From Rhizophagus irregularis (taxonomy: Eukaryota; Glomeromycota; Glomeromycetes; Glomerales; Glomeraceae): DNA of 64,000 nt. Below are positions 1,801 to 60,322 of the stretch, one piece after another. The number at the start of each line of letters is the position of its first letter. The first letter of the stretch is position 1. The notes below the pieces were generated by a model that worked only from the letters and a program-made list of their open reading frames with translations, had not been told where the DNA came from and did not search any database. The stretch spans positions 1,426,001 through 1,490,000 of the forward strand of contig NC_089437.1 of assembly GCF_026210795.1 (NCBI RefSeq), read 5' to 3'. The position numbers and the translations under genes are program-made.

Positions 1801-2765
1801 AGCGCGCTCCGCTCCTATTCTTTCAAGATATCATTGTGAAAATATTTACGACGAAAAAATTCTATGATCACGTGTCGCACAACTGAATCATTTGATCTCG
1901 AAGTCGCTGAGCTTTATAGGAACCAACTGATGAAGAATTAAATAAATAGAATGTGAAAGGTCATTAGATGAAATTGGCTGAAAACAATGAAGGAAACGGA
2001 AGAAATACGTCATGGACATGGGTAAGAATTAAATCTTTAAGAAAAGAAATATGGTTTTTCATGATCGAATTAGTCTATGTCAAAGTGTTGTCACAAAAGT
2101 TTGGCCAGAGACCCCTGAAATATGTCAAATCACGTAACATGCACTTGCGAGTTATGCAACACGAAGGACTTAACCGGTTTCCGTTTTAAAACAAGTTCAA
2201 AATAAATCATATTTCATATATTTTACATTTTGTAGTCACAAATTAGCACTGAAATCATATATGGATTTTTTGCAGTTGACTCACGGATCACGAATTAAAA
2301 CTATACCAGGACCCGAGCAATACATAAGAAAGAGTTTGCATAGAATGGACCAAAATATGGGCAGGTACTTCCTTTTTTTTGATAATTCCAGGCGGAATTA
2401 CGTAATATACTAATATTGAAAAACGCGGCAAAATTTTCATTTTAACGTGTCGAAATACCGAAAACCGTAACAAAAATCTTTTATAAACGCACATAATTCA
2501 CTCACAACCTCATTTTCACCTATTATTTAAAGTGGTTTTGCTCTTCAACGCTAAATTTAATAAGGTGAAATACAGAAAACGTGGCAAAAATAATTTTATA
2601 CACATCCTTTACTTCACCGGTTCACCTCATTTCACTTATTATTTAAAGTGGCTTTGCTCTTCAACAGTAAATTTTAACATGGCGCAATACAGAAAAACGT
2701 GGCAAAAATACTCTTGTACAATAAAAATATGAAAAATATAATTTAAAGTACTTTGAAATACGTAC

Positions 2766-8245: not shown

Positions 8246-9400
8246 TTAGTAACATGTAGTGATTATGTATAACATATTTTGCGAAAACCAGAGGTTTCTG
8301 CAAAGACCATAATAGGGACCCGAATGATACTTTAGGTCTATATCATCAAAAGATAACGATGCAGAACAATTTGGATCTTCAGCCACACATTCCTGAAAGG
8401 CATCTGGATCTTGATCAGGATTACTTATATATAATTCTTCACCAAAATGTTTATAGGACCCAATAAGTGGAATTGCCCATGATGTAGGTAATTGAGGAAC
8501 TGGATCACCATGAATTACAGTTCTTATTGCTCTTAGGTTATCATCAACATATTTAGCAAATTTTTCATCACCAACTCTTGGTTGACCAAATGTAGCAAGA
8601 AACAATTTTTCATTTTTAGCTAATTCTGGCGCTTTATGTATAAGATCTAATGCCGACAATGAAGCAAGTGCTATGATAAAAAAAAAAGACTGTTAAAAAG
8701 TTATAATTAAATATGTAATTTTTTTTTGATTTATTGAACTTACCACCACCTAAACTGTGACCCATAAATCCGATCCTGAAATCGGGCTTTTCTTGGATTA
8801 ATTTTAAAAGATCATCGGTAACTTGGGGTTGAATTTGTTCCCAAGCATTAAGAAATCCATGGTGTACCGTACCAGGTGCAGGATCCCAAGTGTCGTGATA
8901 AATGACAAAGTCAGAAATGTAATTTCTAATACTTGTTGGTTCCGTTCCTCTATATGCTACGATGATTAATTGTTTTTCTGGATCCGTGGCTATGTAACCT
9001 ACATATTTATTATTTTGTTAGTAAACGCAAAAAGTTAACGATGTGTGGCACAGTAATAATATAAAATACCCCTTGTGTTAAGCCGAGGGTTGCTAAAATC
9101 TTTAACCAATTGGGTACCCTTAGTTCTCTGACACATTTCTCCACAGTCCCAATTTTGAAGAGGAGCCTTAACTTAAGCAGTAGCAGCGTAATTAGCAAAG
9201 CTCTGTAAATTAGGAATTGATGTAATGGGACCAAGAGTATTAGGTACTGGAGCAGCTTCGATTAATGCTGATAAAAAGATTAAAGAAATTAAAGAAATTA
9301 ACTTGAAGGATAATGTGTGTTGTAAAAGATGTGAAAAGGAGTTATGCGTGTATTTGGTAGGAGTTGCTTTGCAACTTGAAGAAATAATTTGCTGCTGCAT
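8246..9400 (-). pseudogene. secreted class 3 (fungal) lipase, one nonsense codon
   Basis: Three exons, 9070-9400, 8744-8998 and 8246-8670, splice in frame to 336 residues. All the triad motifs of an alpha/beta-hydrolase class 3 lipase are present: GHSLGGALAS (nucleophile Ser), VIHGDPVPQLP (Asp) and KYHSGPYYG (His). A hydrophobic signal-like segment (LISLISLIFLSALIEA) lies at residues 34-49, so the product should be secreted and cleave triacylglycerols. Its N-terminal stretch is longer than usual, and no other ATG lies nearer the signal. Both introns are GT-AG and interrupt typical lipase sequence cleanly. The only defect is TAA at 9173-9175 in exon 1, just after ANYAATA, where lipases continue into the N-terminal lid region. 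CAA or TAC/TAT could be the ancestral codon. It may be a recent pseudogene, an allele or a sequencing error. The family call is secure; function of this copy is not. Confidence 0.85.
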
Positions 9401-16050: not shown

Positions 16051-19000
16051 CCGGGGGTGATATAACTCGGGTGATATCACCTATTAATTTTATTATAATT
16101 TAATAAATTTGATATGGGTGATTTAACTTAGGTGAAATCACCTATAATTTTATTAATAATTTCGATACGAATAAATTTAATTCAGGCGATATCACCTGAT
16201 TACATTAATTTTACATGATGATATAATTGTTTACATTTGATCGTTTCCATTATTATTTATGAATGATGTAATCAAAGCCACCCGTTTTAAAAATTCTCTC
16301 CCAAACGCTACTTTTTCTGTTTTCGTTAAAAAACTTCGCTTGTTTCGCGTTTCTAAAAAATTGTTTGCGAGATAAAATTAATATCACTCGTTGCTTCTAG
16401 TGTATTACTTACATAAACTTTAATGCAAAACTTTACAATGGAAGATATTACAACCTTTCCTTATGATTCTTTATATAACGATAATTCCGACTTGTTATTC
16501 AACGCTTATTATAATTCTTCATATAATGATTCTGACCAATCATTCAATTCTTATCATAACTCTTTATACGATTCTTTTAATCTGATGCTTGATTTTTCAT
16601 ATGATTTTTCCGACCTATTCCTTGAAAATCATGAAAAAGATAATAGAATCCAAATAGAAAATGAATGTATGGTGAAAAATCATCAGAAAGAAAATAGTGA
16701 GTATTGTGATCAAATGAATCTGACCTTTTATTCGGATAATTCCTCTAATCTGATAGTTAATTCTCACGTGTTCTTCTAATTTATTTCTTAAAAATTATAA
16801 ATAGATAGCAACGTTCAAATAGTAAATAAAAGTATGATAGATATTATAGATTATCAAAGTGATCATCAGGAAGAAAATAGTAAGTAACTGAATGTTATGA
16901 TCATTTGATTCTAACCTGTTATTTGTCTCTTATTGTATAATTCCCCGATCTGATATGATTCTAACATAACCTTTTGATCTATTCTTTAAAAATCATAAAC
17001 AGATAATGAAATTCAAATGGAAGTGGAAGATCATTCGGAAGATTATTGCAGCAAAGAATATGATGATGATAGCGAGTATGAAAAAGAAGAAGATGGATTA
17101 TTAAAGTTAAATAAAGGAATGAAATTTGAAACATGGGAACTTGCTGAATCATACCTTGATGAATATGCGAAGCAAAATGGATTTTGCTTTCGTAAAATAA
17201 GACGTGTATTAGATCCAAATGATAATACAATTGTTAGACGCTGAACATATGAATGCACACATGGCCAAACTCATGAAGCTCAAAAGGTTATTTTAGCAGA
17301 AAATAGAAGGGATAGAGATTCTGAAATGATCGGATGTCCTTGGCACATTAATCTCGCATTTCCCAAATTTTCAAATGGAGTTCGGATTAATAGTATAATT
17401 GGTAAACATAACCATGAGATGAACCCCCATATTTCTGAAATAGCACCAAGATTTCGAAAGCTAACTGACAAAATGCTTGAAAAAGTAAAATTTTGGACAA
17501 TTCAAGAAAAAATGGGCATATCAACGCAATATAACCTTTTAGTAGCCTTGTTTCCAGATAAAGTAATTAATAAAAAAGACTTAAGTAATGCTATTCAACA
17601 ATTTAAAAAACAAGTAAAACCTAGTAAAAATGATGCATGTCAAATGCTTACCGAATTATATCTTAAAAAAGATGATGATCCAAGATGGATTATAAAACCG
17701 CGCTTTGATGTTGGAGAAAGAAGATTAAATTCGCTGTTTTGGATGTCTCCAGACCAAGTTAATGCTTACGGAAAATATCATGATATTGTAATTATTGATA
17801 CAACATCAAGGACTAATCAATTTGATATGATATTGATGTTAGTTATAGTTGTTGACAATAATTTTAGAAATTTAATAGTAGCAGTGGCTATTTTGGAAGA
17901 TGAAACAGAAGCAACTTTTTCGTGGACTCTACAAGAATTAAAAAATTCTTGTGATGTTACACCAATTACCTTGTATTCTGGTGCTGATCTGGCCTTAATA
18001 TCAGCTGTGAAAAAGAACTATCCGGAAACACATCATTTTCATTGTATCTTTCATATAGAACTGAATTTAAGAAAGAAACTTAAGGGAAAATTGCAAGACC
18101 AATTTGAACCCTTTCATGCTAAATTTTTAGCAATGCGTAATTCTTTATGTCCTAAAAAGTTTGAAACAGGATGGGAAGAATTTATTAATGAATTTCCAGC
18201 TTCGAACAATATCTTACAAGAGTTTTATATCCTTGTAAAAAAAGTTGGGCGCGTTTCGCTATTAACCAAAATTTTACTGCTGGAATTCAGAGCACACAAC
18301 GAGTAGAAGTAACTAATAGAATTATTAAAGAAAAATTAAATAGGTCTTCATGTTTAACAGATGTTATTGGAGAAATTCAAAGGATATTTGACCAACAATC
18401 AAAAAGAGCAATATTAAGTGAATGTAAAAATGAAATTCCAACAAGAGGAATACCTTCTATAATGGATGAATACTTTCCAAATCTTGATAAAATTTTACGT
18501 GAATACTTAACACCTCAAATTCTTCAAAAGCAACGCGATCAAATGGTTCAGTCATTATGCTATGACACTGTATTAATTAAAGATTGGCAACCGCTTTTAG
18601 AAGTAAGTTTAATAGTTAATAAGAAATGAAAGTTAAAGATAGTTATTAACAATTAAAATATTTTCTTTTTTTCTTTAGATGATGGATGATTCTTATCAAC
18701 AAGAAATAGCTAGAGAGGATGACTATGACCAACCTCAATCTTTATTTTCTTTATTAGTAGAGAATATACCTTATAATAATATTCTACAAGTGTGGAAAGT
18801 AACAAGACATTGTGGACAAAATTCAGAACCACAATATATTATTCTTCTTAATGATGGTTCACATTTATGTACTTGTCTTTGGCTTATTAACAGAGGGATT
18901 ATATGTAGACACTTTTTCCGTGTTATGTCTTATTCAACTAATGCGCAATTTCATATATCACTTATTCCACACCGTTGGTATAACAATAATAAGTATAATA

Positions 19001-27520: not shown

Positions 27521-30500
27521 TACATCTGTGCAATAACATTTTCTTCTAGTGTCCCCAAAATGTTTGTCAAAATCATTAAAATTGGATTGTGTGATGATGA
27601 TGGTGTTTCTTATGAACTAGGACATTTGGTACCTGTCCTAGCTAGATGTTATATGAATGCATAATATTGGATTCTTTGATATTAATCCTTATTCTTTTGA
27701 GCCTCAAGAGAAATAAAACATTAATATATAAAATTGAGTTTTTGCGTCGCCATTTGCTTTGAGAGTATTTGTACTAGTTGCAAACATAGGAAATTGTCTT
27801 CCAGAATGGTTTGTCTTCTGACTTCTGGAAAAATCAATGCCATTCTCGCACGATCTGTGGAAATTAGGTAAGTTGATATTGTTGAACTTTTATTAGTTGA
27901 AGGAAACCATGCGACGTGACTTAATAATTTATTTGCTGTCTTAGTTATTCTTATTATTAACAAATTGCAAAACAGAAGACTATCAAGCAGTGAAATTCGC
28001 GTCCAGAAAGTTTAACGACCAAAAAGGAAGAAAATAATGTTTTGATCATTTGATCGGTACCATTTATAAAGTAACGTGACTTTGATAAATCAATGATTTT
28101 TTCTTTTTAGTGGTGGTAAAAGTCCGGTTTTGCAGTTTGTCCAATTCAACTCCAAGAAGCCAGCATCTCTAAAAAAAACATTAGAAAATGTTTCTTGAGG
28201 ATAAATAAAAAAACACCTCCCCTTTTACCATGTCAATATAAAGTCCAGTCCCGCAGTTTATCCAATTTCAACTCCAAGAAACTGGTTTATCTATAATAAA
28301 AGAACAAGAAACGTTAAAAACATCTTTTAAAATAATTAAAAATAACACTTCCTTTTACCTTGATGTATAAGTCCAATTATTCCAAGTTCCAAGAGTATTT
28401 ATTGTGTGAAGTTCATAATAATTATATCGATTCAAATGAATTTCCAGGTAATGAACAAATTAATAAGAATATGATTATAAATATTTATATCTGGTGTCCC
28501 TACAAAAAGAATAAAGAACATTAGAAACGTTTCATACCAACTACCCATTTACCAGTCCGGTTCATTCCAAGTCTAGCATCCTTAAAAAAAAAATAATAAT
28601 AAAAATAAATTTCGGTTAAAAGGCTGAAAGAAAATAATAAAAATAATGGGTTGAAATCTCAAAAAGAAAAACAAAACAAATTTTGATTTAAAAAAAATTG
28701 AAAGTAAATTAAATAAATTTCAGTTAAAAAAAAATAGCAAAAATAAAAAAAAATCGGGTTGAAAAATTGAAAAAGAAAAAAGAAAAAAAATTTCAGTTAA
28801 AAAACTGAAAAAAAAAATTAAAAAAAAAAATCAGGTTGAAACCCGAGAAAAAAAAATTAAAAAAAATTTGATTTGAAAAACTGAAAAATTTATTTTATTT
28901 TATTTTTATTTTTAATAGATATCGACAAAGAATGCTAACCTTTAGCAAAGGGCAGAACTACATCAATATATAAGTCACTAGCTAACCCCTATTCCTAGAG
29001 GAATCGTTCCGCCAATTATTGTCAAAGACTCTAAGGCGTAACAAATCTAAATCGGGACCTACCAAAACTAAAAATAAACCTATCTAAATTAAAAAAAAAA
29101 AGAAGGAAAAAAATTATAATATAAAAATAAAATATTCATATTCTATAAAAAATGTGTTTACATGAGAAAAATGAGAAATATAAAATGGCCATTCATTGGC
29201 ATGTAAATAATAAGTTAATAATACAAGACATAAATCATCCATCTCAGAATCAGAGGTTATATTCAAAATTTGAAGGTATAGGTGCATCCGTAATAGGACG
29301 CACAGGTGGTGAATCTTGTTTTTTCTTCGCTGTTTCTTGCGAGGTTTCTGGTATTTTTTATAATATAGTTTTTTCGATCGAGTGGTAATAACAAGAGCGC
29401 GCTCCGCTCCTATTCTTTCAAAATATCATTGTGAAAATATTTACGACGAAAAAATTCTATGATCACGTGTCGCGCAACTGAATCATTTGATCTCGAAGTC
29501 GCCGAGCTTTATAGGAACCAACTGATGAAGAATTAAATAAATAGAATGTGAAAGGTTATCAGATGAAATCGGCTGAAAACAATGAAGGAAACGGAAGAAA
29601 TACGTCATGATATCATCCGGGACATGGGTAAGAATTAAATTTTTAAGAAAGAAATATGGTTGTTCATGATCGAATTAGTCTATGTCAAAGTGTTGTCACA
29701 AAAGTTTGGCCAGAGATCCAGAAATTGACTGTATATAGGGGTCAGGTGATGAAAAAATCTTTTACTATGAGCTGTACGCATTTTTTCAGGGCTATGATAA
29801 TGTCAGTCGGCTACTATAATGGGAAATAAAATTATGAGTGGAATTATCAAAAATTATCTAAAAAAGGAAAGATTTTCATGATCTTTTTTAGTTCAAAATA
29901 CGCAAACTCAAACCTGACCTTTTATATATATTTCTGGGTCCTATACTCCTATTTGACCCCTGAAATATGCCAAATCACGTAACATGCACTTGCGAGTTAT
30001 ACAACGCGAAGGACTTAACCGGTTTCCGTTTTCCTAGCATAGTTACGGTACGATTTCATTTACATAAAACAAGTTCAAAATAAATCATATTTCATATATT
30101 TTACATTTTATAGTCACAAATTAGCACCGAAATCATATATGACTCACGGATCACGAATTAAAACTATACCAGGACCCGAGCAATACATAAGAAAGAGTTT
30201 GCATATAATGGACCAAAATACGGGCAGGTACTTCCTTTTTTTTGGATAATTCCAGGCGGAATTACGTAATATAATATTGCTCGACAGAAAAACGTGGCAA
30301 AAATTTTCATTTTAACGTGTCGAAATACTGAAAACCGTGGCAAAAATAATTTTATGCACATCCTTTACTTCGCCGGTTCACCTCATTTTCACTTATTATT
30401 TAAAGTGGCTTTGCTCTTCAACGCTAAATTTAATAAGGCGCAATACAGAAACGTGGCATAAATCATTTTAAACACATCCTCATTTATTATTTAAAGTGGC

Positions 30501-30625
30501 TTTGCTTTTCAACAGTAAATTTTAACATGGCGCAATACAGAAAAACGTGGCAAAAATACTCTTGTACACTTCATCATTTATAATAATATGAAAAATATTA
30601 TTTTAAAGTACTTTGAAATACGTAC
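27485..30625 (+). repeat. segmental duplication, copy B
   Basis: Collinear with 1-2765. It is longer because of an insertion at 29726-29956 and about 35 extra bp near 30035-30070. It ends at ACTTTGAAATACGTAC (about 30625), immediately before the TATA box of the small secreted peptide gene. Confidence 0.9.
29726..29956. mobile_element. candidate MITE present only in duplication copy B
   Basis: Copy A reads CCAGAGACCCCTGAAATATG without a break. Copy B has about 230 bp between GATCC and GACCC at the same place. The insert ends are imperfect inverted repeats: CCAGAAATTGACTGTATATA..GGTCAGGT against, reversed, CCCAGAAATATATATAAAAGGTCAGGT (written in parts). GATCC/GACCC may be a 5-bp target duplication with one change. 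A deletion from copy A is the alternative. Confidence 0.6.
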
Positions 30626-30644
30626 TATTATAGAAAAATTTTCT

Positions 30645-30652
30645 TATATAAA
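30645..30652 (+). promoter_or_regulatory. TATA box of the secreted peptide gene
   Basis: TATATAAA, 78 bp upstream of the ATG at 30730, followed by an A/C-rich, G-poor leader typical of a fungal 5' untranslated region. Confidence 0.55.
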
Positions 30653-30729
30653 CACTGAGAAAGAGAAAAAAATATATCTTTCAAACAAATTAACAAACAA
30701 AAAATTATAAATAACAACACTAATAAATA

Positions 30730-30936
30730 ATGCAATTAAAACACTTATTGTTGATTTTTTCCCTTACTGTTGCTTTAGCAAGTAAATAATCACCTCTTTA
30801 AAAAAAATTTTTTCTCTTTTTATTAATATTAATTACTAAATAAATTTTTTAATAATTCGTTACTGAAATAGATGCATTACCACAAGATCATGAACGTAGT
30901 GAGCTTAAACGTGACCCGGACTTACCCATGATGTAA
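30730..30936 (+). CDS. 38-residue secreted peptide precursor with a Lys-Arg processing site
   Basis: Exons 30730-30781 and 30872-30936 join at GT-AG (acceptor GAAATAG) to 38 codons plus TAA. Residues 1-19 form a classic signal peptide (MQLKHLLLIFSLTVALANA) with a likely cut after an Ala near 17-19. The rest is hydrophilic and carries Lys-Arg near the end, followed by the heptapeptide DPDLPMM at the C terminus. This is the layout of a Kex2-processed precursor that releases one short peptide outside the cell. The intron splits the signal peptide from the mature part. A TATA box lies 78 bp upstream, and AATAAA-like signals follow at about 31018. The gene starts 20 bp past duplication copy B and has no partner beside copy A. 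I know no named homologue; a signalling role is inference. Confidence 0.6.
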
Positions 30937-30939
30937 CAA

Positions 30940-32040
30940 GTACTTTGCAATAACAAATAAGTTTTGACCGGTGCAAAAACTAATTTATGCGTTTGAAATA
31001 TGTAAATTTAATGAGAAATAAAAGTAATCATACTTAATTTAGGGGTTTTTTTTTAAAAAAAAAATTATTCATTTCAAAATTGTCACTAGTATTAGCAAAC
31101 ACTACTGATCTACTACATTTTGATAAAGCATTTTAATAAAAAGGCTTACCGACAATAGGAAATTAATTTGTAAAACTAATAAGTTACTTTATACCGATTC
31201 GTGCTAATCATGACAGTCTTTTGGTTGTAAAATATATAATGAAATTAAATGAGCCAGAAGCATCAAGTCGCTAGATGAAAAAGTGTTGACTGGATCAATT
31301 GTACACAAAATATCCCATTGTCCATGATGTACAGTATATCGATTAAGTTCTGTCATTGCACAATGATCACGATAAAAGATTGACCATATTGTCTGTTTTC
31401 TTCACGTACGAATTAGATCCAATCTTTAACTATTAATATTCTTTTTATCGATAACTGTGTTTATTTCGAACTCGTACTTCGGATACGTTTCCATCAAGAT
31501 GTAGATTAAATGGGCTTTGTTTTTAATGGATTAATTTTATTTTGTTTTTGTTACTTTTGTTTTTTTTATAGTGTTTGTTTTTCTCTTTTATTTTACACAA
31601 GTTTAGGACGAAGTTTATTATATCAAATTTAATCAATTTATAAGGTCTGGTCGTGGTATAAGTAGTAAGGAAAAAGCAGAAAATATAGAAAACAGGCGAA
31701 AATATTAAAAAAATCAAAAAAAATTATAAAATAATTATAAAATAATTTTTATTTAGTAGCTAGGCAAACAAATTATTCGTTGAGACTCAGCAATTAGAGT
31801 GTATCATTAGTTAGTTAGATCGTTTAGATATATCGATTAGTTATAGGGTTGTTGATGATTTTTTTTTGTCAATAATTCTAGGTATTTTTTACATAATGTT
31901 TCTTTTTAAGATCTCATTAATTAATAAAATGCGTTACTAATTACAAGTTTATTTCGAACCTGATGCAATGTTAAAGCAATAAAAAAATAATAATAAATAA
32001 AAGCGATTATACATATCACAATTATCACATGCATGGTATA
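30940..32040. other. AT-rich intergenic stretch
   Basis: A possible 3' region of the peptide gene to about 31060, then no coding frame, repeat or RNA gene that I can support. Confidence 0.4.
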
Positions 32041-40483: not shown

Positions 40484-43292
40484 AGGTCGTCTAAAGCGGA
40501 GCAGAGTCACGTGACTTAACCAATTATTACAAGCCACAAGCCACGATGTCAAAAAAATTTTTCCATGAAAAAAATTTTTTTTTTTTAATCGTTCATATTA
40601 AAAAAATAAAATAAAACTAAAAAAAACCATAAAAATTTCGCAAAAAAATCATGAAAAATAATGAAAAAGCGAATTTTTCTTTAGAAAAACCATTGAAATT
40701 TCAAAAAATACCATGAAAAAAAACAAAAAATACCATGAAAAAAACAAAAAAAATCAAATTTCAAAAAAATAAACCACCAAATTTTCACGAATATTTTATT
40801 ATAATTATTTAAATTGTATGATAATAGGATTTAAAGAGGCTTCTAATGTAGAAATAAAAGCCTCTGTTCTCTCAGCATTACCCCCCTCTTCAACACTCCA
40901 GTATCTATCGCGGACTCTTTCAGTCAATTCGAACACAGTAAGTTTCCAACTTTTGGCTTTTTTTTGTTGTTCTGTTTGTACAAACTCTATCACTAATTCA
41001 CGATGTTCATATACTTCAAACCCGCTCTCCTCAAATATTTTCTGAAACATTCTCCATACATCAGTAGTTAATAATTTCACGTCTCCATACATATGTTCGT
41101 GAAAAATATGTTTGCACGGTAACAAGTATCAATTGCGAAACAAACAGTGACAATCAAGTGAAGTCAAACCCGGTGTACCTTTACCTTTCTCCAATCTATC
41201 CATTACGGCACAGGCCTCTTTAATAAGTAGATGTTGAAATGGTAAGGGGAATTTGTGAATCTTGATAATATCCTTTTCTACACCATAAGCTGATACTTTT
41301 TTGACACGAAAGTCAAAGGTGGCACTTTTGGAATCAGATTGTTTTTTACAATCAATGGCAACGATATTATGGACGGCACCTAAGATGAATGAATAAACAA
41401 AAAGTGAGTGTCTGAGTGAGTTAATAAGCAAACGTTACATAGAAAATTCGTGTTATTATGTAATTACCTTTAATATGGAAAAGAAGAAAAAAAATTGCAA
41501 ATTTTATAGATTCAAGCATCAAAATAAGAGGCAGAAGGGTGGAAAAAACAACAAAAAAGTAGAATTTTACCAATTAAACCATGTAAGGACGATGTTTTCC
41601 TTTTCAATTCACTGTGGTAAGATTCTAACGGATTTGTGGAGGTGACTTGCAAAAGCAAAGGGGAATGTTGGCGCGCCCACAATGCCCATTGTTGTGTATT
41701 TCTCATGTAATTCCTTCTAATATAATTCTGAATAGTAGGAACAGGACAGTTGTTAATAGCTTCTTGAATCAGTTTTTCGCAACCGATCTTTGTCCTTTTA
41801 TGCATTGCTGCGATCATAACATCACGGGTTTTTTTTTCATGAATTTTTGACATTCACGTCCGCATAATATGTACAACACAAAGTAATACTTCGCACTCTT
41901 GCTCACCGGCGTTTACACCAGGAAAAACAATTTTAACACTTTTAAACTCAACACTACTTTGATCAGATAGGATGTAGCGGGGAGTCCAACGGCAATAGCT
42001 GCGAATTTTTTTTAAAGCTTCTGCAACAGTGTCACTATCCTCACTGCTCACAAAAAAGTGCGCACCTATATTCCAGCATCCGTAAGTGTCGCAAACGTAC
42101 AGTGTAAATAGACGCCAATCATATCTATTTGTTTTATGGGTGGAATCAATTAGAGTCAACCATCCATGATTCTCAAGTTTCTCAAGTTGCTCGGGATGTG
42201 CAAAAACAATGCCCTTAGTAGATCGTTGGTGGACACGATAAATTTCAACTTGATATCCTTGCTCTTTTAAATACGATACTGATTGTGAAATATCAAACTT
42301 TAAATCAGAATTGCCAATGAGATGAACTTCCATAGGTCCACGAACTTTATACTTAATGTTTGTTACTTTCTTGCGCTTCAATTCTTGTGCACTTGCACCA
42401 AGACCTAATTCAATCGTTGCATATTCTTTAACGGCAGCAGTAATTGCCGGAGGCAAATAATTTTTGACAGCTTCTTTTTCCACTAAAGTTCGAATAACTT
42501 GAGGACGTTTAAGCCTATCAACATCTAACAATGAGTGTGTATAGTTGGAAGAGTCTTTATAACGTCCAACTTTAACTATTTTCAACGAGACTAACCATTC
42601 AACTTTAATTTTAGCATGACATAATCCAGATGGTCTTGTCTTCGTTATTTAGCATTTTTCATTAGAAATATTTTCTTTTTGTCGTGTACTAGAGTCTCGA
42701 TGCTTTGTAAAATGGCAAGTAAAGATCTTCCAAAAGTTTCCATTTACTTGTTTATATGAAGTCCATTGTGTCCATATATTTGAAACTAATGGCCACCAAT
42801 TTTCATTGAAATCCTCTATTTGAACTTCCAAAGAGCAATTTACATCAAAAAGGAGATTCCGCTTTTCTTCTGAAGTGATATTTGTCATTTGCGCGGCAAC
42901 CAAAGTGGTAGCAGAAGTATTAATCGAAGAAACAGACATGATAACAAAAAAGATGGAAAAAATGTTTAACTTAACTATTAATTTATAAGTTTAATATTAG
43001 TAAAAAGAAAAAGGACTAAATAAAAAAAACTTACAAAAAAAACAAAAAAAAAAATATTTACAATATTTTTTTTGAAATACGTGAACTTAATATGAAAATA
43101 GTACGATGCTATTCATAAAACGAACAAAAGGACGAAGGAAAAGGTTTACATGATTTGTAAATCCTAAGGCTTAAAAGAAAGAAAGAGCCTGATAAAAAAA
43201 TTTTTTTTAAAAAAAAATAAATAAATAAACAGCCGTGTGGCGGTGCAAATACATGGCGTATCACGTGACTCTGCTCCACTTTAGACGTCCCC
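40484..43292 (-). mobile_element. Mutator-like element (MULE) 2, complete with 9-bp target duplication
   Basis: CAAAATTAG flanks the element at 40475-40483 and 43293-43301. Terminal inverted repeats: left AGGTCGTCTAAAGCGGAGCA, right (reversed) GGGGACGTCTAAAGTGGAGC, both running on into GAGTCACGTGA. A 9-bp duplication is the Mutator signature. It contains a single transposase gene on the minus strand. Confidence 0.92.
40805..42939 (-). pseudogene. MULE transposase with three in-frame stops
   Basis: Exons 41571-42939 and 40805-41379 splice (donor G|GTAAAA, acceptor CATCTTAG) to 648 codons in one unbroken frame. It has an N-terminal Cys/His region (SGLCHAKIKVEWLV), then the MULE catalytic domain with first Asp in LTLIDSTHKTNRYDW, second in RYILSDQSSVEF, the C-x2-H mark in LLCVVHIMRT, and Glu in NPLESYHSELKRK. 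A C-terminal SWIM finger follows (LDCHCLFRN..YLLPCKHIFHEH). It would mobilise the surrounding element. In-frame stops are codon 97 (TAA, 42649-42651), codon 362 (TGA, 41854-41856, where Trp is expected after HIMRT) and codon 540 (TGA, 41129-41131, inside the SWIM finger). There are no frameshifts. Each stop could come from one C-to-T or G-to-A change. Confidence 0.88.
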
Positions 43293-45073: not shown

Positions 45074-47560
45074 TTATGCGATTCTATTTACATTTTCTGC
45101 TGCCTTCTGATACCAATAAATCGCTTTTTCTAAATCAATATTTGTGCCTATACCATTTTTGTAACAAAATCCAAGTTCATTTTGTGCTCCATTATGGCCT
45201 TGTTCAGCTGATTTTTTATATAATTCAAACGCTTTAACTTCATTTTTTTCAATACCTTTTCCATATTTATAACATTTACCTAATTTGTATAATGCAAATT
45301 TATTTCCTTTTTCCGCTGCCTTGTTATACCAATAAACTGCATTTACTAAATTTATCTCTGTACCAATACCATCTTCATAACATGATCCTAAAGAACTTTG
45401 TGCATCAGTATATCCTTGTTCAGCTGATTTTTCATATAGTTCAAACGCTTTAACTTCATCTTTACTAACTCCATCTCCATGTTTATATAATCTACTTAAA
45501 TTATATTGTGCAAATTTATTTCCAATTTCTACCGCTAGTTGATACCAATATATTGCTTTTCCTAAATCCTTTTCTACCCCTATACCACTTTCATAACAAA
45601 ATCCTAAATCATTTTGTGCATCACCATACCCTTGTTCGGCTGATTTCTTATACCATTCAAACGCTTTAATTTTATCTTTATTAACGCCTATTCCACATTT
45701 ATACCATCTACCCAAATTATATTGTGCAGATTTATTCCCATTTTCCGCTGCTTTTTGATACCAATAAAAAGCCTTTTCTAAATCTTTTTCTATACTTTCG
45801 TAATAAAACCCTAAATCATTTTGTGCATTACTATGATCTTGTTTAGCTGATTTATTATACCATTCAAGCGCTTTAGTCTCATCTTTTTCAACGCCTATTC
45901 CATATTTGTAACATCTACCTAAATTATGTTGCGCAACTTCATTCCCATTTTCTGCCGCTTTTTGATACCAATAAACTGCTTTTACTAAATTTTTTTTCGT
46001 GCCTATACTATCTTCATAACAACATCCTAAATCATTTTGCGCGTCACTATACCCTTGTTCAGCTGATTTCTTATACCATTCAAATGCTTTAACTTCGTCC
46101 TTTTTAACACCATCCCCAATTTCATAACATACACCCATTCTATATTGAGAAGTTTTATTCCCATCTCCAGCTTCTATTTGATGCCAATTAAATATTTGCA
46201 TATTAGACCCACTTTTATATTGTGAAGAATAATTCAAATCTGTTGTTCTTTTGCTTAACACTTCTAAATTATAATTATTTTTTATTGAAGAATTATCTTC
46301 TTTTCTTTCGTTAAAATAATTATTTTTTAATGATTTAAGAGTCGAAACAAGTTCTTCCATATGAGGACGTTCATTTGGTTCATATTTCCAACATCCTGAT
46401 AAAAAATAAATAAATAAATAAATATGTTTATATTATTTATAATTTTTGTTAAGCGTTATGTTAATATAACTTACTTGTATATAAATTGCTATACTCAATA
46501 GGGGTACCATTAATAATTTCACCTCGTCTACCACTTATTACGGATAAGAGAAAACTTACATCATCACAGGTAAAATCATCTTTAGAAAAAAATGGTCGAT
46601 ATCCACTTGAAATTTGCCACATGATAACACCGACGCTATATACATCGGACTTTTTATCTAATTTGTAATCTTTATTATTAAGTTTTTTTGGATCTATATA
46701 AGCCATTACACCCACTATTTTCGATGCATTATTTGACGCTTCAACAATTTTTCTTGATAAACCAAAGTCTGCCACTTTAATATTTTTTTGATGTATGAGT
46801 ATATTATTTGCATGCTATAATATCGCGTTAAAAAATTATAATAAATAGTTTAGGATTTTTATTGTTAAATAAATCAGATGTAATAAATGATAAAATATTA
46901 CCAGATCACGGTGAATAATATCATTTTCATGCAAGCAATATACAGCACTTGCTAATTGTAATGCCAAACAAATTTTATCCCCCCATGTAAGTTCATTAAA
47001 ATGTTTATCTAGATAGGCATTTAACGTACCACTATCGGCATATTCCAAAACCAAAGCGTAATTGTTCGTTTCGCCTGAAGAAAATAAAAGAAATAATTAA
47101 ATAAAGAAACATATTTTAATAAAAAAAAAATCAATACGCTATTCTCTCTCTGATTCTTACAAGTTGCTTCTTTTGTGACTCCATAGAATTTTAATATATT
47201 TTCATGAAAATGAGCTTTCCGATGTAATATCAGCTAAAAAAAAAAAATATTCAATCTTTTTATTGATTTTTATTATTACTATATGAAATGATAATAATAT
47301 AATTTTCTTACCTCATTAACAACTCCTTTAATAGCAGTTCTTTGATTATTATTATCAAAAGATTTTAAAACTAAAATTGTATCAGTATTTTTCCAATTGG
47401 CACTATAAATACTTCCAAATGCACCATTTCCTATTTTTTTTATATTTTTAAATTCAGAATATTTATAATAATCTAAATAACTATTATCTATTGAATTCTC
47501 TAACCATTTAATGTAATCAATTTGATCATTCGAATATTCAATATCTTCCATACTTGACAT
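45074..47560 (-). CDS. TKL-type protein kinase with ten Sel1 repeats
   Basis: Five exons (47312-47560, 47161-47233, 46902-47074, 46475-46814, 45074-46395) splice in frame to 718 residues. The kinase domain has the glycine loop GNGAFG (44-49), Lys66 in LVLKSF, the catalytic HRDLHANNIL (Asp164) and DFG at 181-183, so it should be catalytically active and phosphorylate proteins on Ser/Thr or Tyr. From about residue 357 to the end there are ten Sel1 repeats of 36 residues, which form a helical scaffold for protein partners. The repeats alternate between two types (..[13 protein letters not shown] and ..[13 protein letters not shown]). Repeat 4 lacks a few residues. Start: ATG at 47560 gives a short acidic leader, and no earlier in-frame Met follows a plausible context. 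Kinase-Sel1 fusions are greatly expanded in Glomeromycotina. A related pseudokinase lies upstream on the same strand. I see no defect. Confidence 0.92.
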
Positions 47561-48682
47561 TTTTTTTTAATGTTCTTAAAAAAAACAATACGATCGTAAA
47601 CAGAAAAACAGTAAAAAGAGAAAATGTCGATCATTGAGCGCGTATCAATCTACCTCATTGTAATTTCACGTGATAATGTTTATTTTTTGATCGAGCGAAT
47701 ATTAAGGTTAATCAGTAATCTGATGTTTGTTTATTTATATAACATTATCTAATTATATTTGTTGAATTCATCAATCTAACCAATTTAATTATTTATTTGT
47801 TTGTGAATATATCATATAAGCTAAAAAGAGTAGGTAATCGTAAAAAAAAAAAATTTAAGTGGGTTAATGGTGACACAAATTATCTAAGCAGAAACTTAAA
47901 TAAAGCAAATGTCATATCTATACCTTACTGCGCCTGTAGAAGAATGGCTTATCGTAATAATTTGTGGAATTGGCACTATAGGCGGAAAAGTCTCGATATT
48001 AAAGAAAATAATTCATTTGTTGTAAGATTTTATGTTATACCAAGTTTAGATAACTTTTTATTAAACTGTAGAAACCAATTCTAATCTTAAGCCACATATT
48101 GTCCTCAAACAACATTTCCTCCGACACTAACAACACATTTTATAATACACCATACCCTTTCAACTCATCTATGAAAAATAATTTGTAATCCTGATAAAAA
48201 TGGAGAAAATTTCCCCCTAAAAATGGTTATCAATTGTAGAAATTACATGTGCAGTACAAACTAAATGTATATTTATTTATATATATGTTTTTTTTGGCTT
48301 TATTTAATTTTTTAATTAATAAATATATAACAAATTACAGTTTTCATTAATAATGTCCAGTCGTCACTGACAACTGTCAATTAATACTTGCTGATGCAAT
48401 TCATGGATATCAAATCCACAAGTCAGAATAGAATCGAAATCAAATCTCTGAAAGTCAAAAATCGACCCATTTGATTGATTTTAATATGACTAATATGATT
48501 TAATTCGTCAAAAAATAAAACTTTGTAAAAGATTGAACAAACCATCCAACCAATTATAGTGAGATCCCATCAAATAAAGTCTTTAAATCTGCTACTAATA
48601 GCGAAGGATGGACTTACAAGCGTTCGTTATATGTTTTCCTTGCATTTAATAACATAGACCAATAATGAAACTAGCTAATAAA
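47561..48682. other. intergenic between the two Sel1 kinase genes
   Basis: Holds the promoter of the 45-kb kinase gene (its start is at 47560) and the 3' end of the pseudokinase gene. A plus-strand frame at 47797-48084 lacks an ATG and recognisable content. No repeat seen. Confidence 0.4.
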
Positions 48683-51235
48683 TTATCTCAACATAATCTC
48701 ATAATACAGTGGATCATTACTTTTCTAAAAGAAAAAAAATTAACGTATCAATATATATGTATATGAAAGTATCGCATTAAAATTAATTTTATTTTACTTA
48801 CGATAATATCTTGATCACACCATTGTCTTAATTTTGTATAAGCCCAATCTAATCCTAATAGCAAGGCCTGTTCATACCACCTTTTCGCTTCGCCTAAATC
48901 TTTATCAATATGATACCCATTTTCATATCCTTCAGCAACAATTTTCATTGCTTTTTCATACCTATTCGAAGCAGCTCTTAAATACCATTTAAATGCTTCA
49001 TCTTCATCAGTCTTTTCATTTTTTTCACCAATTCCACCATCATAACCTCCATTTTGATAACATTTTGCTACCTTATATTGTGCGATCATTAACCCATTTA
49101 TAGCGGCTTTTAAATACCATTGAAAAGCGGCAAGATTACTTTTAATAGCTCCAAAACCTTTTTTATAACAATCACCAATTTTATATTCAGCATTAATATA
49201 ACCACCTTGAGCAGATTTCATATACCACATAAACGCTTCTTTACTAGTATCTCTTAACATCAAGTTCTTCTTACCGAAACAATTAATCGAGATAGTATTA
49301 TTATAATAATATTCTGCTAACATAAATTGACACCAAATATTCCCTTCGTTGGAATATTTTTTCAACAGCATATAAGCTTGTTTGACACTCTTTTTTGTAC
49401 CACAACCAATGAGATGAGCATTAGCCAGTAAAGCTTTTGATATTGGATCATTATTATCTTTACCCATTGTATAACAATGAAAAGCCAATATTTTATCTTG
49501 TAACGTTCCTATACCGTTCTCATATAGTATACCAAGTAATGATTCATAAAATTTTTGAGATGGAACATTTTTAACTGAATCGAATAATGACGTGGGATCT
49601 AATTGTTTTGATTTTAGCCAATATTGTAGTTGTTTTGGAAAACTATTTAAATCTATTCTAACCTGTGATTGATAGAATTCAAATAATTCCTCAATGAAAT
49701 TAATTTGAGAAGTTACACTTATCGTACTTTGTTGTGTAGTTGTAAGTACACTAGGTGCTGCCGATATTTTAGAAGACGGTGATGGTGATGGTGTTGATCG
49801 AAAGAAACTAGTATTTATTAATCTTGAATTTACATTAATGGGATGTTCATAAAAGCTAACTCCACTTCTCCTAAACGATTTTGAATTGTTATCTCCAATT
49901 AATTCTGCTGAACTATACCTCCTTTCCTTCCTTTCTTGTTCAGTTAACGCTTCAATAGCAGAATTTTTAAGATCTGGAAATGAAACAGAATTACGTGGTT
50001 GATTTATTATTTCTTCGTTCTTTTTTTTGAAATCTAAATTTTTTTGTTGAATATTTTCTTGTTCTGTTTTTTCCTGTGGTTGTTGATTAATTTTTAATTG
50101 TGATTCAACCATAATTTGCTCAGAATTCAAAGATTCCTTTATTTCATCTACTTCATCACATGTTGATTGTAAATCTGTAACAGCTGTTGAAAGTGTACAT
50201 CGTTCTTCAGGATTATATTTGGTTAAATTATTAAAAACCTTAATATAATTTTTAGGACAATCTTTTGGAAGTTTTTCATTTAAATCTTGAATAGTATTAA
50301 CATTAGATTTTTCTTTCTCTATATTCTCACTTTCCAAATTCTCATATGGAATCATTCCGTCACATACGACTACAAGTTAAAATTTTTGAGATTTTAGATT
50401 TCCTTGAAAAAAAAAAAAATTGAAACGAAATAAAACTCACCACTCCAAAGAATAAGTCCACAAGAATAAATATCAGACAAATATGGATTTCTAAAAAAAA
50501 AATCAATTGTTATTTTATTTGTACACGCTTGAATAGAAAACGCAAAAAAAAAAAATAATTAAATACTTACTTTACAAGCCATGAATTAATATTTTCATCT
50601 TTACAAATTCTTTCTGGAGCCAGCCAACATAAAGAATCTTTTTTAAAACTTTTTTTTTCACCATCATCTTTTTTATTTACTCCTCCTTTGACTGCAAAAT
50701 CGGTTAATTTAATTATACCATCATCCGTCACTAATATATTTGATAATTTTAAATTTAAGTGTAAAATATGTTTTTCATGACAATAATCTAATCCTAATAA
50801 TATTTCATTTAATAATTTAAATTTTTCTTCCCAAGTTAATGAAGAAGATTTTAGATGATCATGTAAATTGCCTTTAGATGCATATTCAAATATTAATGAT
50901 AAGTTTTGATTTGGTAATGACATTATACCAAAACATTTTATTATATTTTGACTTGAACGTAATCTATAATATGTATAAAATTCTTGTCGTGTCGTTTCTT
51001 GGTCATTCTAATTATTTTTATAAAATAAAATAATTTATTAATAAAAAAAAAAATTTTTATAATTTAATAAGGAAAAAAAATTGTTTTTTCTTTATCGTAC
51101 CTTACTCAATTTAATCGCTACATCTTGACCTTTATAATTTCCTATATATACATTTGTTTTATTTCCATTATATTCTATAGGATTTTCATTTTTAGTAATT
51201 TCATCTTTCTTAATATACATTTTACGTAATGCCAT
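48683..51235 (-). CDS. Sel1-repeat pseudokinase
   Basis: Exons 51101-51235, 50571-51007, 50441-50490, 48802-50369 and 48683-48724 splice in frame to 743 residues. The N-terminal 250 residues are a TKL-like kinase fold with the ATP Lys kept (VAIKLSK, Lys42), but there is no proper glycine loop, HLN in place of HRD (128-130, in HILHLNLKLSNIL) and DFA in place of DFG (148-150). Catalysis is therefore unlikely, and it is probably a scaffold or allosteric partner. WLAPERI and the SDIYSCGLILW helix are intact. A Gln/Glu/Ser-rich linker follows (about 260-440), then about six irregular Sel1 repeats (for example EAFMWYMKSAQGGYINAEYK) to the C terminus, one with a 10-residue insertion. The last 14-codon exon is inferred from a clean GTAAGT/TTTTAG pair; without it the frame would run on 17 codons from the donor. 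Confidence 0.88.
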
Positions 51236-53522: not shown

Positions 53523-56500
53523 TCAATAACCTTGATGATTATTATATCCTCGATCATTTTGATTATTATAATTTTGATGATTATAATTATAATTATTTTG
53601 ATTATAATTATTCTGATTATAGTTGGTTTGATTATAATTATTTTGATTATAATTATTTTGATTATAATTATTTTGATGATTATTTTGATTGTAATTGTTT
53701 TGGTTATAACCTCGTTGGTTATATTGTTGTGGTGGAGTAATTGGAGGTGGGAGTGGAGGCGTGTAGCCGCCTCTCGGTGCGGAATTATTGTAATTATTAA
53801 TTTCTCTAGGTTGTTGTCTATAAAGAGAAGAGGCATCATCACTATAATTACTATAATTATCAACAGAAGGTGCAGGACTTTCTTGTCGAAGTAAATGTAA
53901 CGAGGATGAGCTATTATTATCATATTGATATCTAGGTCTTGGTTGTTTAGGATAAACGTTATTATTAGGATAAACGTTATTATTAGTATTAGGATTATTG
54001 GGATTATTGGGATTATTGGGATTATTGGGATTATTGGGATTATGATAATTAGGATTATTAGGACTATTAGGAGAATTTGGAGGTAATCTTGGATTATTAT
54101 TTGGATGCATATTTCTTTGTTGATGATGATTCTGATTCTTCTGAGGGAAATTATTTGCTGACGCGTATGTAGTACCAGAATAATTGCTAGCGGTATCACT
54201 GTAATCTATGTAATAACCAGGTTTTTGTTCTTCATAATAAGCTTGCTCATCCCATTCCAATTCTTTATTATCAACCGTTTGAATATTAAAACTTTGATTA
54301 TTTTTGCCTACTATCATTGACATGCTTCTAATTGTGCCCCTTCTATTAACTTTTGTTTCATCAATTCTACCATTATAAACTTTACTCAATAAATGTTTAA
54401 CATTTGAATGCACCATTGGAGTAATCAATTCTGCTGTTAATACAGGGTGTCCAAATCTATTACTAACTTTATCGTTAGTATTGGAAACTATATTATTATT
54501 ATATTCTGGATCGGAATTTTTTCGTTTATAATAACGAATTGGTGCATCAAATCTTTTTGCACAAATAAATTTAACTATTAATGTCATTGCAGGTAATGGA
54601 AGTAATGCTACCGATTGGATATGAGCTCCTTTCAAGTTCATCACAGCGACCATTATCACTTGCCAGAATAATAAAGAAGCGATGAGTCTATTAAAAACTA
54701 CCCTCCAAAATGTTCCTCCCGTCTCTATTTTCGTTGTAAACACGTACCTAAAAATGTAAAAAAAAATAGAGGTTTCATTAGTTATTCATGAATTCAGTTA
54801 ACTGTTGCTCACGCGTGCTTATCTCGTGTACTTACATTAATTGATATCTGTAAACCACAAGGGCCAAACTAAAGTAAGCGAAACAAAAGAATAAAATCAA
54901 AGGTGCAATCACGCTATATAACATTCCAACGGTGAAGAAAAATAAATGAATATTATAATAAACAGGATAATCAAAATCTGGAGGTCTACTAAATTCTTTA
55001 ATGTTTCTTGGAGTAGGTTGAACGAAAAATTTTTTTATGCTGATTAAAATTAATGAAACTATTTGTGCTAGATCAAATATGGCACCAACTCCTCTTAGAC
55101 TAATATAATTAATCCAAAATGATGAGACTTTAATTAAAGAATCCGCTAATTCGTCCAAGAAATCCGCTTCCTTAACAACTTTATAAAGATCTTTAAAGTC
55201 TGTATTACCAGCATTTATTGTGGCCCTAATTTTACCGTATAAATCAACCAAAGTGGAAGATAATGTATACATTACAATATTATTAATTAAAAAGAACAGA
55301 TATAATTTTCCTAAAACTGCTCTATCCAATGATGATTTTGTTGCTTTTCCTTGATATCTTGATATTATTCTTAATATTTGAGGAAGTACGATAAAAAATG
55401 CACCCATTATCATTGGACCCATCCAAGATTCTATAAAACCCGCTAAAAAGTCATTCGCGTAAAAAATATCTCCTGTAAATGGCGCTATCTTAACTATATT
55501 TTGAATTTGAGCTGCCGTTGTTAAAAAACCAATAGGAAATAACCAAAAAAAGCATAATAAAAGAAAGAATGCATATCCGATCAATCTTTTTGTTCCCTTG
55601 ACAGCATTTGTCACCGTTAAATTATTCCAAATAATATCTTTTGGCCATGGCGCTAACAATATTTGAGGTTCATTCAAGGTAACTTTGCCTTCAAATTTTT
55701 TCGCTACTGAATGCGCATCAGCGATATTTGTGAATGAAACAAATCCGTAATTAATGGCTTTCCTTTCCTTTATTCTTTCCCTTTCACTATAAATTTCTTC
55801 TTCTAAAGATTGTATTCGTGATGTATAATAATCAATACTATCAACTTTTTCTCCTCCACATCTTCCGCCTAAACTATGTTTTGGTCTTTTACTCGAAATA
55901 TGATTAGGATCTTTTAAATATTTTACTAATACTGATTCAAGCTCTCTAACAGCCTTTTCATGTTCTTCAATCAATTCCGGTAATCTACCAACTTTTCTTG
56001 ATATATGCACTTGTGATACTTGTTGTTGGTTAACTTTTAAATTTCCTATAACATATTTTTGTAATCCTTCATCTGATTGCATATTTGATGGTACTCCAGT
56101 GATCAATATTGTTCTTGAATGTAATGAACTTTGATATTCTTCTGATCGAAAATATTGTTTTTTCAATGCTGAATATTCTTTATATTGTTTGTATAAAAAT
56201 CGAAATATGATCAATGAAAATATCCATGTAAACGCTACATGAATCCAAAACCAACGCGACTGAAATATAAAGGAAATTCAGTTAGAAAAAAAATACCATC
56301 GCTTTTTAAAAGAGTTAAACAATCACAATAAAAAAAATAACTCACATTTCTTAAAAATGATATGCTCAAGTATTGCAATGGATTATCAGTTTTAGGAAAC
56401 TGTTTACGATCTTGCCTAGTACCGTATAAATTTGCACCAGCAATTGCTAATCCAAGTAAAAATAACCATAAAAACATATTTCTGCACATTCTAATAAATC

Positions 56501-58823: not shown

Positions 58824-60322
58824 ATGTCAACGCACTTTTTTCAAAAATTAAGCCAAAATTATATTGAGATCTTAAAAGATGATGAATATTATGATATTAC
58901 AATTGAAGTTGGTGAAGATCCGGATGTAAAAATATTTCGTGCTCATATGATTATCCTGTGTTACCGCTCTCCTTTTTTACGACGTACTTTAGCCTCCAAT
59001 AAAATTCGTAATGATGGTAATTTAAATCATATTAAGTTACCAAATATTTCACCAGAAATCTTTCAGGTTATTTTAAAGTAAGTACTTTTTATAACCTTAA
59101 ATTTAATAATGAACTTTATTAATAAATATTTATTTATAGGTACATTTACGGGGGAATCTTTTCTTTAGACGAACAAGATACTATAAATATTTCAAAAATA
59201 TTGACTGCCGCTGATCAACTTCATCTTCAAGAATTAGTTGATTATTTACAAAAGTATTTAATTAAAAATAAATCAGAATGGATTGAACAATATTTTGGAC
59301 TTATTCATCAAATAAGTTTTCAATCAAATTTATTATTAGAACTTCAACAATTTTGTACTGATTATATCGCTGAATTTCCTGAAAAAATATTTAAATCGCT
59401 TGATTTTACTTCAATTTCCGAAAAATCTTTAATCTCACTTATTAAACGTGATGATTTAAAAATTGATGAAGTTAAAATTTGGGATTATGTACTAAAATGG
59501 GGTCTTGCACAGAATTCATCAATTATTTCTGATCCTGCAACTTGGTCTGATAATGAATTTAATATGATGAACATTACCTTACAAAATTGTTTACCTTTTA
59601 TTAGATTTTTTGGTTTATCTTCTAAAGATTTTTTTCGAAATGTTCGACCTTATAGAAAATTTTTAAAAGATCAACTTTATGAAGAATTATTGGAATTTCA
59701 TTTGGATACTGAAAGTCAAATACCAAATAATATTTTATTTCCTAGATCTAATGAACTTTGTTCAAAAATCATTAATATAAATATTGTATCCTTAACTTCA
59801 GCGTGGATTGATAATACAAGTATTAATAATAAATTCTCTCATATAAGAGATTTTTATTTACCTTATAAATTTAAATTATTATTAAGAGGAAGTAGAGATG
59901 GTTTCACTCCTAAAAGTTTTCACTCATTATGTAATAATAAACCTCATACTATTACATTTATTAAAGTAAAAGGATCAGAAGAAATTATTGGTGGTTATAA
60001 TCCTTTAATATGGAAGAATTCATGTGAAGGTGAATGGGGTAAAACGAAAGATAGTTTTATATTTTCTTTTAAAAATAAGAATAATGTTAAAGATACAATT
60101 TTAAGTCGTATAAAGGATTTGGATCGAGCTTTATTTTATTGTGATGAATTTGGTCCTGCATTTGATACTGATCTTTTAGTATATGTGAATGATGATGATT
60201 GTTTAAATGAATATAATTCTAGTGGGTGTAAACAACGTAGTTATGAAAAAAAGGTAAGGGATTTAGTAAAATTTTCAATAGATGATTATGAAGTATTTCA
60301 AATCATGAAGAAAGAATCATGA
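58824..60322 (+). CDS. BTB-BACK-TLDc domain protein
   Basis: Exons 58824-59077 and 59140-60322 join in frame (AA|G) to 478 residues. Residues about 20-105 are a BTB/POZ domain (YYDITIEVGEDPDVKIFRAH, LCYRSPFLRRTL, NISPEIFQVILKYIYGG). About 120-220 is a BACK region (FCTDYIAEFPEKIFKSLDF, LKIDEVKIWDYVLKWG). About 280-465 is a TLDc domain (FKLLLRGSRDGFTPKSFHSL, HTITFIKVKGSEEIIGGYNP, DSFIFSFKNKN). BTB proteins of this class usually act as dimeric substrate adaptors for Cullin-3 ubiquitin ligases, and TLDc is linked to oxidative-stress resistance. Large families of this architecture are typical of these fungi. The ATG at 58824 lies 18 codons before the BTB start. Its bases seem intact. Confidence 0.92.

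What the first reader, a model, noticed from the sequence alone, without database searches (positions are those of the whole stretch)
30730..30936. A 38-residue Kex2-type secreted peptide precursor hidden in two tiny exons
The sequence shows a 52-nt and a 65-nt exon with clean GT-AG borders, a strong signal peptide, and a Lys-Arg followed by only seven residues (DPDLPMM). A TATA box and leader precede it. Kex2 cutting after Lys-Arg is established fungal biology; that this releases a signalling heptapeptide is inference. Genes this small are missed by normal length cut-offs, so a family of ultra-short precursors could be undescribed in this lineage.
Basis: partly seen in the sequence, partly recalled or inferred. 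Interest (0 to 1): 0.75.

Follow-up and report, generated by a model that had tools for sequence, protein, structure and literature searches.

The report
Minimal pheromone-like peptide precursor gene
The tiny two-exon gene is real: it is one of the shortest members of a large family of pheromone-like secreted peptide precursors in what looks like a mycorrhizal fungus, where a shared promoter and signal-peptide cassette sits in front of very different final peptides.

Summary
Exons 30730-30781 and 30872-30936 around a GT-AG intron encode MQLKHLLLIFSLTVALAN-ALPQDHERSELKR-DPDLPMM. It is not chance: 26 other loci of the same genome share its DNA, and the signal-peptide exon occurs at 38 places against 0 in a reversed control. 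Several paralogues are typical Kex2-processed repeat proteins (KEPs), with up to 28 KR sites. KEPs of this style were already reported from Rhizophagus irregularis (PMC6339444). The window gene is a repeat-less homologue: one KR remains, and a second site looks decayed to Glu-Arg. KR is followed by Asp-Pro, an X-Pro dipeptide that Ste13-type peptidases remove, so DLPMM is a likelier product than DPDLPMM. Six other complete models are 50 aa or shorter; the published screen required three repeats. Not found in the papers searched: a conserved upstream cassette (element about 200 nt before ATG, TATA box, leader) that marks family genes; 12 of 14 loci fetched for the element carry the signal-peptide exon downstream. 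Whether this copy works or is a relic is open, about 55:45. Transcription, the peptide, and conservation in other species could not be tested.

The parts
30530..30557 (+). upstream element GCGCAATACAGAAAAACGTGGCAAAAAT, 200 nt before the ATG
   Evidence: 22 places in the genome at up to 3 mismatches, 0 in reversed control; 18 of the 22 are followed by a family signal-peptide exon on the same strand 168-414 nt further on
30610..30652 (+). second conserved upstream block, including the TATA-like TATATAAA at 30645-30652
   Evidence: majority-base frequency 0.68-0.85 per 10-nt bin at -120 to -80 in 39 aligned upstream regions, against 0.44-0.56 at -160 to -130
30653..30729 (+). presumed 5' leader
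   Evidence: between TATA-like box and ATG; matched in many paralogues; transcription start not known
30730..30781 (+). exon 1, signal peptide MQLKHLLLIFSLTVALA plus first base of the next codon
   Evidence: family signal-exon at 49 places in the fetched loci; pN/pS 0.38 over 37 open copies
30782..30871 (+). phase-1 intron, GTAAAT...ATAG
   Evidence: same splice position in the complete paralogue models
30872..30936 (+). exon 2, NALPQDHERSELKRDPDLPMM and stop (N is split by the intron)
30892..30897 (+). Glu-Arg codons at the place where paralogues have their first KR; probably a decayed Kex2 site
   Evidence: alignment with L002, L003 and L004, which have AAACGT there; inference
30907..30912 (+). 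Lys-Arg Kex2 site
   Evidence: KR is the recurrent site of the family
30913..30918 (+). Asp-Pro, Ste13-type X-Pro dipeptide
   Evidence: 103 of 132 family KR sites are followed by X-Ala or X-Pro; Ala+Pro are 8.4% of residues in long ORFs of the window
30919..30933 (+). DLPMM, likely mature pentapeptide
   Evidence: same five residues end the intact paralogue L002; release is inferred

Best explanation
The locus is a minimal, repeat-less member of a dispersed family of Kex2-processed secreted peptide precursors in an arbuscular mycorrhizal fungus, probably Rhizophagus irregularis. Each family gene has an upstream cassette (element at about -200, TATA-like box, leader), a 52-nt signal-peptide exon, a short phase-1 intron and a variable second exon. 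The preproprotein enters the secretory pathway, signal peptidase cuts after Ala-Leu-Ala, a Kex2-type protease cuts after KR, a Ste13-type dipeptidyl aminopeptidase removes Asp-Pro, and DLPMM is secreted; the peptide probably acts as a signal, on the fungus itself or on its partners. Shown: sequence, gene model, family, Ste13-style dipeptides, cassette, and domains of a Kex2-type and of two DPPIV-type enzymes in the genome. Inferred: transcription, processing and signalling. I put the chance that this copy is still functional at about 0.55; it may have arisen from a precursor with more repeats.
For: Family by DNA: 26 other loci. Signal exon: 38 places, 0 in reversed control. Of 49 signal-exon places in the fetched loci, 37 have ATG, GT donor and open exon 1, 27 give a complete model and 21 of these have KR: 9 with one or two sites, 12 with three or more. 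X-Ala/X-Pro after KR at 103 of 132 sites. Exon 1 under purifying selection in the family as a whole: pN 0.140, pS 0.365 over 37 copies. Genome has one P_proprotein (Kex2-type) match of 67 bits and DPPIV_N matches at two places. The window copy has all splice sites, ATG and frame; under neutral decay on its own branch an intact ORF would survive with probability about 0.05-0.09 (branch 0.08, 0.2-0.3 indels per substitution). Published: seven R. irregularis KEPs show differential expression (PMC6339444, passage).
Against: No transcript or peptide data. Exon 1 of the window copy differs from L002 and L003 at 9 of 52 sites each, more than upstream (12/221, 17/227), intron (7/88, 7/88) or 3' flank (49/437, 51/499), so no purifying selection can be shown in this copy. 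The conserved tail lies beside an equally conserved 3' UTR, so its identity with L002 may only be recency. A second Kex2 site looks lost. The neutral-survival figure is only modestly small and depends on the assumed rates: it is 0.18 at 0.1 indels per substitution.
Confidence: 0.6

Rival explanations
1. Decaying relic: the window copy is a leftover of a longer KEP gene that lost its inner repeats and by luck stays open.
For: Of its close relatives, L003 has a stop after the first repeat, L004 lacks the ATG and has a stop, L027 keeps only the 3' end. First KR appears as ER. Exon 1 diverges at least as fast as the flanks. Of 49 signal-exon places only 27 give a complete model by the script's rules. 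A promoter-only copy lies at 2187-2765 of the window.
Against: ATG, both splice sites, frame, KR and X-Pro all remain; survival under neutrality about 0.05-0.09 at the measured rates; six other models of 50 aa or less with KR are complete, so short does not mean broken.
Confidence: 0.4
2. A chance open frame with no relation to peptide precursors.
For: Two tiny exons in A+T-rich DNA are a weak signal taken alone.
Against: 26 related loci, 38 signal-exon places against 0 in the control, splice position and KR-X-(Ala/Pro) shared.
Confidence: 0.02
3. The unit is a repeat or mobile element that merely carries an open frame.
For: Copies on many contigs, incomplete copies, a promoter-only copy in the window; homology to L002 and L003 runs from about 30.2 to 31.5 kb.
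Against: Matches end at different points in different copies, unlike a mobile element with fixed ends; conservation is in separate blocks with valleys between; exon 1 has pN/pS 0.38. No transposase reading of the unit was made.
Confidence: 0.08

Closest known systems
KEX2-processed repeat proteins (KEPs) of Rhizophagus irregularis (Le Marquer et al. 2019, PMC6339444)
   Same: Secretion signal, KR sites, X-Ala/X-Pro Ste13 signature after KR; homologous paralogues in this genome (e.g. L010, L012, L016) have the repeats.
   Different: The window gene has no repeat and one KR site. [quoted passage not shown] Table S2 was not available, so I cannot say which paralogues are in it.
Ascomycete alpha-type pheromone precursors (MF-alpha)
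   Same: Signal peptide, KR followed by X-Ala/X-Pro, short unmodified peptide; some precursors have only one peptide (PMC6339444, passage).
   Different: No MF_alpha Pfam match in 7 family proteins scanned; no STE2 match, though that search's controls were silent too; STE3 is present.
SP7 and its relatives in R. irregularis (PMC5293756, passages)
   Same: Secreted, repetitive, with predicted KEX2 sites in the same fungus.
   Different: Relation to this family was not tested here.

Membership tests
KEP (definition of PMC6339444) | secretion signal peptide | tested here: inconclusive
   Hydrophobic core, Ala-Leu-Ala end, family conservation; SignalP not available.
KEP (definition of PMC6339444) | at least four fragments on cutting at KR/RR (or KK) | tested here: not met
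   One KR in the mature part gives two fragments.
KEP (definition of PMC6339444) | at least three similar repeats | tested here: not met
   No repeat in the 38 residues.
KEP-type family of this genome (homology) | same promoter, signal exon, splice position as genes with KR repeats | tested here: met
KEP with Ste13 signature | X-Ala or X-Pro after KR | tested here: met
   KR-DP in the window; 103 of 132 family sites.
Alpha-type pheromone precursor | MF_alpha / MF_alpha_N domain | tested here: not met
   No such match in window protein or six paralogue proteins at E <= 1.
Alpha-type pheromone precursor | Ste2-type receptor in the genome | tested here: inconclusive
   No match, but the controls did not ring either.
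Alpha-type pheromone precursor | peptide triggers a mating response | not testable with these tools
   Needs experiment.
SP7-like effectors | sequence relation to SP7 | not tested
   No SP7 sequence was used.

The most novel reading that the evidence does not exclude
The upstream cassette plus signal-peptide exon is a co-regulated module that fires dozens of alpha-pheromone-like precursors, each giving different 3-8-residue peptides (for example YGY, WGYF, QWWDLPMM, DLPMM, PWAW): a diversified peptide code for self/non-self or partner recognition in a fungus for which no peptide pheromone gene was found. The window gene would be a one-peptide letter of that code.
Probability: 0.1. Interest if true: 0.85.

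Novelty: new variant of a known kind. Interest (0 to 1): 0.45.

Why it matters
Halary et al. found STE3 and the downstream pathway in arbuscular mycorrhizal fungi but no peptide pheromone gene (PMC3834313, passages). Screens for KEPs need several repeats, so precursors with one or two peptides are invisible to them. This window gives one such precursor, six more complete models of the same size, and a DNA cassette by which further members can be found in other strains and species without relying on gene annotation. That makes it testable whether the family is co-expressed, and when.

Tried and rejected
A chance open frame was rejected on homology. MF_alpha membership was sought and not found in 7 proteins. 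The same scan gave one paralogue (L015) an Antistasin match of E 7.6e-5, above that family's cut-off but with no stretch passing on its own, which I take for a low-complexity effect of its repeats, and L009 an Apidaecin match of E 0.22, under the cut-off. Ste2 was not found, but that search cannot show absence. A test of selection on the window copy alone was tried and has too few sites. No collection with other Glomeromycotina genomes could be searched, so conservation across species is untested. Paper searches for the family name KEP1, the string KRDA, short-peptide terms and promoter or motif terms gave nothing on short members or on the upstream element; supplements could not be read.

Limits of the counts. 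Genome searches give lower bounds. The scan is ungapped, so it misses signal exons with insertions or deletions, among them L007, L008, L020, L026, L028, L030 and L056, seen by eye or; they are not among the 49. In one search the acceptor was chosen by likeness to the family consensus, which left several loci without a model (for example L059 and L017, which have KR in an open frame). L033 counts among the 21 although its KR site lacks the Ste13 signature. In one search the loci L055 and L056 passed only the looser DNA rule; the opposite-strand control was positive at 2 of 21 and random window segments at 27 of 3000.

Full report
Observation. The window reads ATG at 30730, a 52-nt exon, GTAAAT...ATAG (90 nt), and a 65-nt exon ending in TAA at 30936; the product is MQLKHLLLIFSLTVALANALPQDHERSELKRDPDLPMM. 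A search of both strands of the window for models of this kind finds this one only, and none in reversed sequence.

Where it lies. The genome has 146.7 Mb in 32 contigs. No tool names it; size, base composition, Sel1 and kinase genes next door and the KEP style fit Rhizophagus irregularis, which is inference.

A family. Blastn of 30700-30960 finds 26 other loci of this genome. A 30-base pattern of the signal exon has 38 places at up to 3 mismatches, 0 in the reversed control. Reading the loci shows one plan: signal exon of 52 nt (MQLKYLLLIFVFTIVLA-like), donor usually GTAAAT after the first base of a codon, a short intron, and an exon 2 that starts Asn/Asp-Ala-(Ala/Glu)-Pro and goes on with KR-bounded units. 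L010, L012, L015 and L016 repeat KRDA(E/V)PEAYGY-like units; L021 repeats KREDFN; L029, L036, L039, L043, L057 have other units. An ungapped profile gives 49 signal-exon places in the fetched loci. Of these 37 have ATG, GT and an open exon 1, 27 give a complete model, 21 of those have KR; 9 have one or two KR and 12 three or more; 7 are 50 aa or shorter, the window gene included. The other six short ones are L002, L009, L013, L031, L048 and one of the two genes in L029.

Processing signature. 103 of 132 KR sites are followed by X-Ala or X-Pro; 28 sites belong to L021, where only 2 fit, and without it the figure is 101 of 104. Ala and Pro make 8.4% of residues in long ORFs of the window. The genome has one P_proprotein match of 67 bits, the mark of a Kex2-type protease (the match has one stop inside, possibly an intron), DPPIV_N matches at two places as expected of Ste13-type enzymes, one STE3 gene and no STE2 match in a search whose controls stayed silent. 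In the window gene KR is followed by Asp-Pro; by the Ste13 rule this leaves DLPMM.

Close relatives. L002 is intact and ends KRDADAQWWDLPMM. L003 stops after its first repeat and keeps a related tail out of frame with it; L004 lacks the ATG, has a stop and keeps KRDPGLPM in its remains; L027 keeps only the 3' part. The window codons Glu-Arg at 30892-30897 stand where these relatives have Lys-Arg. The likely history is loss of inner repeats and of the first site.

Function or relic. For function: intact ATG, splice sites, frame and KR; simulated neutral decay on the window branch (0.078 substitutions per site, 0.25-0.29 indels per substitution in the 3' flank) leaves an intact frame in about 5-9% of runs with branch 0.08 and ratios 0.3-0.2; with ratio 0.1 it is 18%. 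Against: exon 1 differs from L002 at 9 of 52 sites while upstream differs at 12 of 221, intron at 7 of 88 and 3' flank at 49 of 437. Family-wide exon 1 has pN/pS 0.38, and window against L002 has 5.0 changes over 36.5 nonsynonymous and 4.0 over 11.5 synonymous sites, too few to decide. I put function of this copy at about 0.55.

Upstream cassette. In 39 aligned upstream regions (profile score 60 or more, at least 300 nt held) conservation comes in blocks: majority-base frequency 0.75-0.82 at -190 to -170, 0.44-0.56 at -160 to -130, 0.78-0.85 at -100 to -80 with the TATA-like box, 0.50 at -70, and 0.84-0.93 in exon 1. The 28-base element GCGCAATACAGAAAAACGTGGCAAAAAT occurs at 22 places at up to 3 mismatches, 0 in the control. 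In 18 of the 22 a family signal exon follows on the same strand; of 14 loci fetched for the element (L044-L057; L057 had also been hit) 12 have it, 2 of them by the looser rule; random window segments are positive at 27 of 3000 and the opposite strand at 2 of 21. One element without a gene lies at 2682 in this window, within a copy of the promoter region at 2187-2765. Shared descent explains some of this similarity; the valleys between blocks suggest that the blocks themselves are kept.

What is known. Le Marquer et al. 2019 (PMC6339444; passages and section 24 read) define KEPs, report many in R. irregularis, most with Ste13 signatures and rich in Tyr, and require three repeats. Kamel et al. 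2017 (PMC5293756, passages) report KEX2-cleaved repeat proteins including SP7 relatives. Umemura et al. 2020 (PMC7329392, passages) list a KEP type shared by Rhizophagus, Diversispora and Trichomonascus; whether it is this family is untested. Halary et al. 2013 (PMC3834313, passages) found STE3 but no peptide pheromone gene. Mateus et al. 2020 (PMC7490403, passages) did not see pheromone genes upregulated in co-inoculated roots. My searches showed no paper on the short members or on the upstream element; the library holds open-licence papers only.

Verdict. Real gene, known kind, unlisted variant: a repeat-less homologue of KEPs.

Noticed in passing
window 2187-2765: A copy of the gene's upstream region (83.6% identical to 30065-30625), with the upstream element at 2682 but no signal-peptide exon after it: a promoter-only relic 28 kb away.
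   Followed up: partly
window 30309-30584: The upstream region repeats itself: 30389-30490 and 30480-30584 are 83% identical, and 30309-30362 matches 30519-30572.
   Followed up: no
L005 1533-1900, L006 1533-1900, L007: Paralogues with the same promoter, signal exon and intron but an exon 2 without KR (e.g. NAAPFDPNNKMASDVDCISTDFENCYRITGAV): the cassette also heads bodies that are not Kex2-cut repeats.
   Followed up: partly
L058: An open frame with YGY-type KRDA repeats followed by a long run of KRQEE repeats (326 aa open frame); no signal exon was sought by hand.
   Followed up: no
window 17245-18306 and 41854-42648: Two MULE-type transposase reading frames.
   Followed up: no
window 45074-51007: Sel1-repeat frames and a protein kinase frame.
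   Followed up: no
window 8246-8692, 54832-56277, 59126-60322: Class 3 lipase fragment, RSN1/PHM7-type membrane protein, BACK-TLDc protein.
   Followed up: no
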